Shown here: in pieces, positions 40,574 through 49,632 of the stretch
Position numbering within the stretch: position 1 is the first letter of the stretch
Layout: each line of letters begins with the position of its first letter
Origin: Acidaminococcus massiliensis
Lineage (GTDB): Bacteria > Bacillota > Negativicutes > Acidaminococcales > Acidaminococcaceae
Reading direction: 5' to 3'
Assembly: GCF_900095825.1 (NCBI RefSeq)
Contig: NZ_LT608315.1
Location: forward strand, 1,600,311-1,664,310
DNA length: 64,000 nt
The notes under the pieces: model-generated
What the model was told of the DNA's origin: nothing
Databases searched by the model: none
What the model saw: the letters and a program-made list of their open reading frames with translations, nothing else
Translations under genes and position numbers: made by a program

Positions 40574-40780
40574 CACGGATTACATACTTTGCAGGGGACA
40601 TACCCCTCATTGACCGCTTCTTCTTGGGAGTCAATCTCTACGAAATTGCCGATGCTTGATGGTCTGGCAGTCATCCTGGTGGAATTTCATGGTGCGGGGA
40701 TTGCCCAGATAGGCAAAGACCGGCAGAGCCAGCAGCAGAGTGAAAAGCAGGGTCAGGAATAGGATGGAAAACCTTTTCAT
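40573..40780 (-). pseudogene. Small exported Ada-type metal-binding protein, frameshifted
   Basis: The ATG at 40780 opens a signal peptide (MKRFSILFLTLLFTLLLALPVFA) followed by YLGNPRTMKFHQDDCQTIK. The frame then breaks near 40655; removing one base gives IGNFVEIDSQEEAVNEGYVPCKVCNP and a stop at 40573. The rejoined product of about 68 residues has the H...DC...C-x-x-C pattern of the Ada zinc-binding fold, often found in small proteins beside nucleases or DNA-uptake genes. The gene is inactive as sequenced. Confidence 0.7.
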
Positions 40781-40885
40781 AGACCAACTATATAAAGTCA
40801 AGCCAATTTTAAAATAAATTTCAGTTGCTATGGATCTTGGCAAAAGGGCGCACCTACCCAAGCCCCCTCTTGTGGGCTTAAAAAA

Positions 40886-42055
40886 TCAAGCTAAATAAGG
40901 GCAGCCACTAATACCAAGCCGGTAAATCAATCGGATCAGTTTCTTGGCTACATGGGACAAAGCGACTTTGTAAGGTTTGTGTTCTGACAGTTTCTTTTCA
41001 AGGTATTCTTTGAATTTCGGTACGTTCTGTGCAACCAGGCGGGCGGCAAGGTACAGTGTCTTTCGCAGATAGGGGGATCCTCTTTTTTCCATCTTGTTAT
41101 GCTTCGAATGGTAGTTTCCAGAGTCATGTTTGGAAGGTGACATCCCTGCGTAAGCCAGGAGCTTGTCGACATCCGGAAAACGCTTGAAATCACCAACTTC
41201 GCCCAGAATGCTGGCACAAAGGGTATAACCGATCCCTGGTATGTCAATAATCGAAGATTCTTCCTGGTCCACCATTTCCTTAAGCTTCTCATCGATTTCA
41301 GCGATATGCTGCTTCAACACTTCAATATCCGTAATGGTATGGACGAGTTCCATAGAAGCCGAAAGTGAGACTTTACCGATAGAACGGCATGCTGCCTGGT
41401 GGATTTCCAAAGCCTTGCTTTTGTCAAATCTCCCCTGGGAGGCATCACTTAACAGGTGCGTCAGCCGCTTCATGCTGCAATGAGCAATCTGTTCATGGCC
41501 AGGATAGGCTTTTAGAAGCGCATAGATTGAAGCAAGATGGATGGAAGATGTCAGCCCTTCCAGCTCTGGGAATAAAATCGTAACCAGACGGGAAACTGAT
41601 ATCTTTAGCTTGGAACACTTCTGCATGGTTTGAGATCTGTAACGAGAGAGTGATTTCATTTCCTCGTTATGGTACAATGAAGAAGAGTAGGTTTGGGATC
41701 CTTTCCCTGACACAATCATCTGTGCAATAGCGCAGGCATCGACTTTATCAGTCTTGGTTTTACGCAGGCTGAATCCTTGCTTGTATCTATTCGTGAGAAG
41801 CGGATTGAAAGTGAGCAGTGGAAGGTCATGTTCTGAGATGAAATGGGCGAGATTCGAGGAATAGTGACCGGTTGCTTCCAATCCTACTCTTATTTTATCT
41901 TTTGGAATGCCCAGTTCAGAAATCTTGGAAAGGAGCATGTCAAAGCCTTCCCGTGAATTGGGAAATGTAAAAGATTCAACTGTTTTCAATGCATCCGAGT
42001 CAATGATACAGCAGTCATGTTTCCGCTTTGCAACGTCAATTCCGATACAAAGCAT
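40886..42055 (-). CDS. IS110-family DEDD transposase
   Basis: The 389-residue protein starts at 42055 after AGGAGGTTGA. The N-terminal RuvC-like DEDD domain shows CIGIDVAKRKHDCCIID (first Asp), GLEATGHYSSNLAHF (Glu) and KTDKVDACAIAQMI (last two Asp). A coiled linker follows, then the C-terminal transposase_20 domain with SIIDIPGIGYTLCASILGEVGDFKRFPDVDKLLAYAGMSPSKHDSGNY, which holds the catalytic-serine region, and KRGSPYLRKTLYLAA. All catalytic positions appear intact, so it is probably active. An upstream in-frame extension to 42289 is only the translated non-coding region. Confidence 0.93.
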   Translation of the reverse strand: MLCIGIDVAKRKHDCCIIDSDALKTVESFTFPNSREGFDMLLSKISELGIPKDKIRVGLEATGHYSSNLAHFISEHDLPLLTFNPLLTNRYKQGFSLRKTKTDKVDACAIAQMIVSGKGSQTYSSSLYHNEEMKSLSRYRSQTMQKCSKLKISVSRLVTILFPELEGLTSSIHLASIYALLKAYPGHEQIAHCSMKRLTHLLSDASQGRFDKSKALEIHQAACRSIGKVSLSASMELVHTITDIEVLKQHIAEIDEKLKEMVDQEESSIIDIPGIGYTLCASILGEVGDFKRFPDVDKLLAYAGMSPSKHDSGNYHSKHNKMEKRGSPYLRKTLYLAARLVAQNVPKFKEYLEKKLSEHKPYKVALSHVAKKLIRLIYRLGISGCPYLA

Positions 42056-42106
42056 AAAAATCAACCTCCTTTTTTTGAATTGGCAGCTGTGCATCAAAGC
42101 CACAGA

Positions 42107-42240
42107 GACTTCATCATAATGTATCCTCGCTAGATATGAACCGTCGAGCGGTATCCAACTCATTAACAAATTGAATGAAGTCTGTGGTCGGACTCTACGA
42201 AAACCGTCAAGCGGTAGGGGTTCGCAACCGATCCACAGCT
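42107..42240 (-). ncRNA. Candidate IS110 bridge RNA
   Basis: The region before the transposase start folds, on the transposase strand, into two successive branched hairpins. The first (42182-42238) closes with CTGTGG(A)TCGG/CCGACCACAG and holds an inner GCGAA...ACCGcttgaCGGT...TTCGT stem. The second (42107-42182) closes with GACTTCAT(T)CA/TGATGAAGTC and holds GATACCGctcgaCGGT...TATC. Two similar inner hairpins with ACCG/CGGT arms and internal loops fit the two-loop plan of IS110 bridge RNAs, which guide donor and target choice. The fold is drawn by eye. Confidence 0.55.
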
Positions 42241-42313
42241 CCATTCTAATCGTACCGTAATTCACTATAAAAGAGAATATCTGGTACAACTCTATTATAC
42301 GAGGAGGTCAGCC

Positions 42314-49345: not shown

Positions 49346-49632
49346 CAAGGAAAGGCAAATGAACTCCATAAACAAATCTGATGATGGGAAAGAGTACTTT
49401 CTGGATGCGTGCCTCCAGAGAGCCGGTGGATGGTGTGAACCGGCGGCCTGGCCGAAAGGAAAATCCTCCCGGAAGAGACGGGCTGAAGCAAAATTAAGTC
49501 CGGACGGCTGTTCCCCGTTAGTGGAAACGCGTATGTTGGTACGTTGCAGAGTGCTCTCAGGCTGCAAGGCTTGGGGGAAAATGGGTGGTATCGCGGAGCT
49601 GGCTCCGTCCCTTTTGGGGACGGGGCTTTTTT
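49340..49632 (+). promoter_or_regulatory. T-box riboswitch leader of the BASS transporter gene
   Basis: The leader has the T-box parts in order: AGTA motif (49393-49396), a stem I distal hairpin GCCGGT...ACCGGC with GGATGGTGTGA in its loop (49422-49444), a specifier loop region around 49452-49462, the T-box GGGTGGTATCGCGG (49583-49596) and a terminator CCGTCCC/GGGGACGG with a T run (49605-49632). Uncharged tRNA should stabilise the antiterminator and allow expression. The UGGU bulge would pair with a tRNA ending in ACCA (discriminator A). The specifier codon is not certain: GAA or AAA near 49454-49457 fit best by eye. Confidence 0.88.

What the first reader, a model, noticed from the sequence alone, without database searches (positions are those of the whole stretch)
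42107..42240. Candidate bridge RNA of an apparently intact IS110 element
The non-coding region before the transposase folds into two branched hairpins, each with an inner ACCG(C)...CGGT stem and internal loops. This matches the two-loop layout reported for IS110 bridge RNAs that program donor and target recognition. The transposase keeps its DEDD residues, so this could be a new working guide-RNA recombinase.
Basis: partly seen in the sequence, partly recalled or inferred. Interest (0 to 1): 0.6.

Follow-up and report, generated by a model that had tools for sequence, protein, structure and literature searches.

The report
Self-inserting bridge-RNA IS110 element
This is a genuine, apparently intact jumping gene of the IS110 family whose small guide RNA names both its landing site (a repeated hairpin sequence) and its own ends; that kind is already known, but in this genome the element has also repeatedly landed inside its own guide-RNA gene, which I did not find described.

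Summary
The noncoding 5' end of a 1,521-bp IS110 element (window 40781-42303, minus strand) folds into two branched loops, and 27 related RNAs show compensatory changes (18 of 28 pairs). About 20 copies in the host genome fix the ends and the CT core. Loop 1 matches the target, a REP-like hairpin repeat: GCGAACCC+CT equals the left target and CGUAG is complementary to CT-ACG. A 92%-identical element in a second genome has a changed guide and sits at the correspondingly changed target. Loop 2 matches the element's own ends. All four guide segments track their DNA across relatives (permutation p <= 0.001). A TTGACT-17-TATAAT promoter would form at the circle junction; DEDD and the catalytic serine are kept. 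So it is a new member of the known bridge-RNA IS110 kind; expression and activity are untested.

Four loci carry the first 89 bp cut exactly at that core and followed by element-start sequence, against none among about 46 comparable bRNA genes elsewhere. Self-insertion is the best explanation.

The parts
40781..42303 (-). Complete IS110-family element, both copies of the CT core included (1,521 bp plus one CT)
   Evidence: Common limits of 14 full-length copies in the genome; un-inserted REP-like sites read ..CCC-CT-A..
42302..42303 (-). CT core at the left end
   Evidence: Left and right junctions against un-inserted target sites
40781..40782 (-). CT core at the right end
   Evidence: As above
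42292..42301 (-). Right donor (RD) CGTATAATAG; holds the -10 box TATAAT (42294-42299) of the circle-junction promoter
40783..40801 (-). Left donor (LD) ..AGTTGGT and upstream -35 box TTGACT (40796-40801)
   Evidence: joined RE-LE gives TTGACT-17 nt-TATAAT
42100..42291 (-). Predicted bridge RNA gene (5' stem-loop about 42247-42291, then target- and donor-binding loops); transcript ends are inferred
   Evidence: Fold z -3.11; promoter position
42182..42238 (-). Target-binding loop (TBL)
   Evidence: Covariation, helices 1 and 2, 96% of cells paired
42216..42225 (-). Left target guide GCGAACCC plus core CT, identical to LT+CT of the REP-like target
42195..42199 (-). Right target guide CGUAG, complementary to CT-ACG; next base (42194, A) can pair with LD position 7 (handshake position)
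   Evidence: rule from PMC11208158
42214..42215 (-). AC that follows the guide core in the gene and equals the target's first two right-hand bases: makes the gene itself a target; observed break point lies between 42216 and 42215
42108..42181 (-). Donor-binding loop (DBL)
   Evidence: Covariation, helices 4 and 5, 100% of cells paired; basal helix 3 only 45.5%
42155..42160 (-). Left donor guide AGUUGG, equal to LD AGTTGG; next position mismatched (A against T)
42125..42135 (-). Right donor guide, discontinuous AU-(CUA)-GCGAG, complementary to CT-CGTAT; next base G (42125) can pair with LT position 7 (handshake position)
   Evidence: IS621 rule
40886..42055 (-). IS110 recombinase, 389 aa; D7, E60, D103, D106 and S312
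   Evidence: Pfam PF01548 and PF02371, NCBIfam NF033542 'IS110 family RNA-guided transposase'; IS621 alignment

Best explanation
It is a bridge-RNA-guided IS110 insertion sequence. Inferred cycle: the element excises as a circle; joining RE to LE creates a sigma-70-type promoter (TTGACT-17-TATAAT) that transcribes the bridge RNA from the left end. The first loop pairs with a REP-like hairpin repeat (LTG GCGAACCC-CT with the bottom strand, RTG GUAG with the top strand). The second loop pairs with the circle junction LD-CT-RD. The DEDD/serine recombinase exchanges strands at CT. Shown here: ends, core, target family, complementarity of all four guide segments, stem covariation, promoter halves, intact catalytic residues. 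Inferred: expression, circle formation, catalysis. In addition, because the two bases after the guide core in the bRNA gene (AC) equal the first two bases of the right target, the bRNA gene is itself a full target and the element has most likely inserted into it.
For: About 20 copies with shared ends; targets and un-inserted targets reading CCC-CT-AC (47 pattern matches against 0 for the backward control). A 92%-identical element in a second genome of the genus has LTG TGCGCCCC-CT and sits at TGCGCCCC-CT, with RTG CGUAG against CT-ACG. Guide-to-DNA match of true pairs against permuted pairs over 13-15 elements: LTG p 8e-5, RTG 2e-5, LDG 9e-4, RDG 9e-4. Covariation. Junction promoter. Catalytic residues. 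Self-insertion: LE fragments ending exactly at element base 89, 4 junctions in this genome, 0 in 19 other genomes.
Against: Guide-target matches within this genome are imperfect, and three guide alleles do not track their targets significantly (p 0.16). The window's own copy sits at a poor site (GCTGACCTC-CT-AT, about 4 of 8 left-target bases). LDG is mismatched at LD position 7 in the relatives too. The basal stem of loop 2 is poorly supported in the alignment. No RNA or activity data. The assembly has N gaps at some copies, though not at the self-insertion junctions read.
Confidence: 0.95

Rival explanations
1. The structured leader is a cis-regulatory or attenuator RNA of the transposase mRNA, not a guide.
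For: It lies directly upstream of the CDS and is strongly folded.
Against: No Rfam family matches. Loop bases match target and element ends in all four predicted segments and change together with them across elements. The promoter is formed only in the circle.
Confidence: 0.03
2. Decayed lineage: recombinase and bRNA look intact but the element is no longer active.
For: The window copy sits at a poor target; several guide-target pairs mismatch, as after gene conversion or drift.
Against: 14 full-length copies, 98-99% identical, all with open CDS, at different insertion sites.
Confidence: 0.15
3. The LE fragments that end at element base 89 arose without bRNA guidance, by homologous recombination, slippage or assembly error.
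For: Copies are near-identical and some carry assembly gaps. Loss of the resident's remainder by recombination is needed in any case for L021 and L023.
Against: All four LE fragments free of gaps stop at exactly the guide core, with three different guide sequences, and all continue into RD sequence (whole element in L021 and L023; 7 nt in L022; 4 nt in the 82%-identical L024). Two of them are not beside a full copy, so copy mis-assembly does not readily produce them.
Confidence: 0.15

Closest known systems
IS621 / IS110-group bridge RNA elements (PMC11208160, PMC11208158)
   Same: DEDD plus serine recombinase, long left end, CT core, RE-LE promoter, 5' stem-loop plus TBL plus DBL, guide layout LTG/RTG/LDG/RDG, handshake positions, REP-type targets
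   Different: Different guides and target; about 3 nt instead of 2 appear unpaired in the right donor guide; recombinase only distantly related (phmmer E 2e-19); evidence of insertion into its own bRNA gene
ISCro4 (PDB 9t56)
   Same: Closest solved structure by sequence (E 6e-20)
   Different: Distant; its guides were not compared here
IS1111-group elements with seekRNA (PMC11187229)
   Same: DEDD recombinase family with guide RNA in a noncoding end
   Different: That group is described as having subterminal inverted repeats; here the guide RNA lies upstream of the CDS, as in IS621

Membership tests
IS110 bridge RNA element | DEDD_Tnp_IS110 and Transposase_20 domains with DEDD and catalytic serine | tested here: met
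IS110 bridge RNA element | Long noncoding end with structured RNA of two internal loops | tested here: met
IS110 bridge RNA element | TBL bases match both sides of the target around the core | tested here: met
IS110 bridge RNA element | DBL bases match the element's own ends around the core | tested here: met
   one mismatch at LD position 7
IS110 bridge RNA element | Promoter formed at the RE-LE junction of the circle | tested here: met
   Sequence only: TTGACT-17-TATAAT
IS110 bridge RNA element | Insertion at a CT core shared by target and element | tested here: met
   Junctions against un-inserted copies of the repeat; no true allelic empty site was available
IS110 bridge RNA element | Circular intermediate and expressed bridge RNA | not testable with these tools
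   Needs PCR and RNA sequencing
IS1111 group | Subterminal inverted repeats | not tested
   No dedicated search made; position of the RNA upstream of the CDS argues for the IS110 group

The most novel reading that the evidence does not exclude
Bridge-RNA elements face a self-targeting problem, because the left target guide in their own gene is an exact copy of the left target plus core. Whether the gene is spared would depend on the bases that follow the guide core differing from the right target, a self/non-self rule like that of CRISPR flanking motifs. This element breaks the rule (AC after the guide, AC in the target) and has inserted into its own bRNA gene several times: 4 broken against 17 intact bRNA genes in this genome; 0 against about 46 comparable genes where the bases differ (Fisher p about 0.008 by hand; copies are not independent).
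Probability: 0.5. Interest if true: 0.6.

Novelty: new member of a known kind. Interest (0 to 1): 0.42.

Why it matters
It adds a well-documented IS110 subfamily with many copies, a defined target and a natural guide/target change between two genomes, useful as a candidate bridge recombinase. The self-insertions suggest a simple rule for how guide-carrying mobile elements avoid attacking their own guide gene. The rule can be tested directly, and it matters when guides are reprogrammed: a guide whose right target equals the linker bases would attack its own expression cassette.

Tried and rejected
Rfam search of the window: no bRNA family, only a T-box elsewhere. Within-genome tracking of guide alleles with target alleles: not significant (p 0.16). 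Avoidance of AC as right target across relatives: the right targets differ from the linker in nearly all, but pyrimidines dominate and G is also absent, so no selection against AC can be claimed (read by eye). The first phylum-wide pattern search for self-insertions used the wrong spacing (8 free bases) and missed even the known cases; repeated with 7-10 free bases on 20 genomes. Empty allelic site of the window copy: right-hand flank not found in a syntenic place in relatives. Viral contigs and plasmids: no close copy.

Full report
OBSERVATION. The minus strand of 42107-42240 folds into two adjacent branched hairpins with inner ACCG..CGGU stems, more stable than dinucleotide shuffles (z -2.96; with the 5' stem-loop z -3.11). 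It precedes a 389-aa recombinase (42055-40886) with PF01548 and PF02371 and NCBIfam 'IS110 family RNA-guided transposase'. Aligned to IS621, whose catalytic residues are D11, E60, D102, D105 and S241 (PMC11208158), it keeps D7, E60, D103, D106 and S312.

ENDS, CORE AND TARGET. The host genome holds 14 full-length copies and several gapped ones, about 98-99% identical, all full copies with an open frame. Left junctions mostly read ..CCC-CT-CGTATAATAG, right junctions ..AGTTGGT-CT-A[C/T].., so the element is 40781-42303 with CT at both ends. Most copies sit in a REP-like hairpin repeat GGCCGGGA.GGG...GCC..GGC...CCC-CT-AC; the genome has 47 pattern matches against 0 for the backward control, many of them un-inserted and reading CCC-CT-A.

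GUIDES. Rules are those of IS621. LTG: GCGAACCC-CT in the RNA equals the left target plus core of L003 and L020. RTG: CGUAG is complementary to CT-ACG. LDG: AGUUGG equals LD AGTTGG, then one mismatch. RDG: AU-(CUA)-GCGAG pairs discontinuously with CT-CGTAT, like IS621 but with three instead of two unpaired bases. The bases 3' of RTG and RDG can make the handshake pairs described for IS621. Tests: an element 92% identical in another genome of the genus (G001) has the guide TGCGCCCC-CT and sits at exactly TGCGCCCC-CT, with CGUAG against CT-ACG. Over 13-15 related elements the true guide/DNA pairs match better than permuted ones for all four segments (LTG 8e-5, RTG 2e-5, LDG 9e-4, RDG 9e-4); these elements are related, so the p-values are optimistic. 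LD/LDG variants that change together include AGTTGG, AGTTAG and AGTTTG.

STRUCTURE ACROSS RELATIVES. On 27 sequences 18 of 28 pairs show changes on both sides, 0 of 500 shuffles reach the score, and sliding the partner destroys pairing. The loop-2 basal helix is weakly supported (45%). A covariance model found the RNA in 12 of 398 genomes of the phylum sample.

PROMOTER. Joining RE to LE across CT gives TTGACT-17 nt-TATAAT, as reported for IS621 (PMC11208160).

SELF-INSERTION. Besides whole copies the genome holds LE fragments that stop exactly at element base 89, the T of the CT inside the left target guide. In L021 and L023 the fragment is followed at once by a whole element; in L022 by seven bases of RD; in L024 (an 82%-identical relative) by four. 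The outer flanks of L023 together form an ordinary REP-like target, so the fragment is what remains of a resident copy. In the gene the guide core is followed by AC, which is also the right target, so the gene is a complete match to the bRNA it encodes. A pattern for such junctions finds these 4 in this genome and none in 19 other genomes, which together hold about 46 comparable intact genes with a different right target (plus 14 in G005; genes whose sequence the junction pattern could not have matched were left out of this count). Most likely route (inferred): a circle inserts into a resident bRNA gene, then homologous recombination between the tandem copies removes the resident's remainder. 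I found no mention of self-insertion in the two bridge-RNA papers searched for it or in the library search; the library is incomplete.

LIMITS. The window copy itself lies at a poor site. Within the genome, guide alleles do not significantly track targets. Nothing here shows expression or activity.

VERDICT. A new member of the known bridge-RNA IS110 kind, with an unusual and testable self-targeting property.

Noticed in passing
L027-L050, L280-L307 (related elements in other genera): Their guides spell the complement of a Shine-Dalgarno sequence (TCAC-CT-CC), and in 32 of 46 insertions the CT core lies 5-12 nt, mostly exactly 8, upstream of an ATG opening a frame of 40 codons or more (background 12%; own genome 1/15, G005 1/14). 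The element's right-donor end re-supplies AAGG, so the ribosome-binding site would be kept. No paper describing this was found.
   Followed up: partly
L310 (NZ_OY725734.1, 1,563 bp circular): A 'plasmid' record that is nothing but one IS110 element closed on itself; the junction is LD-CT-CAC-CT-RD, five bases longer than the expected LD-CT-RD.
   Followed up: partly
G000:C4, L007, L008, L003: Three left-target-guide alleles coexist in one genome (GCGAACCC, GCGCGCCC, GCTCGCCC), the second with RTG UGUAG instead of CGUAG.
   Followed up: partly
L022 about 1100-1250: A direct-repeat array (ATTTCTAAGCTACCTTCACGGTAGTAAGC, CRISPR-like) directly follows a broken element start.
   Followed up: no
window 49372-49615: T-box leader, plus strand (127 bits).
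   Followed up: no
window 40575-40742: Short stretch beside the element that recurs at 77% identity elsewhere in the genome and at 74% in G004.
   Followed up: no
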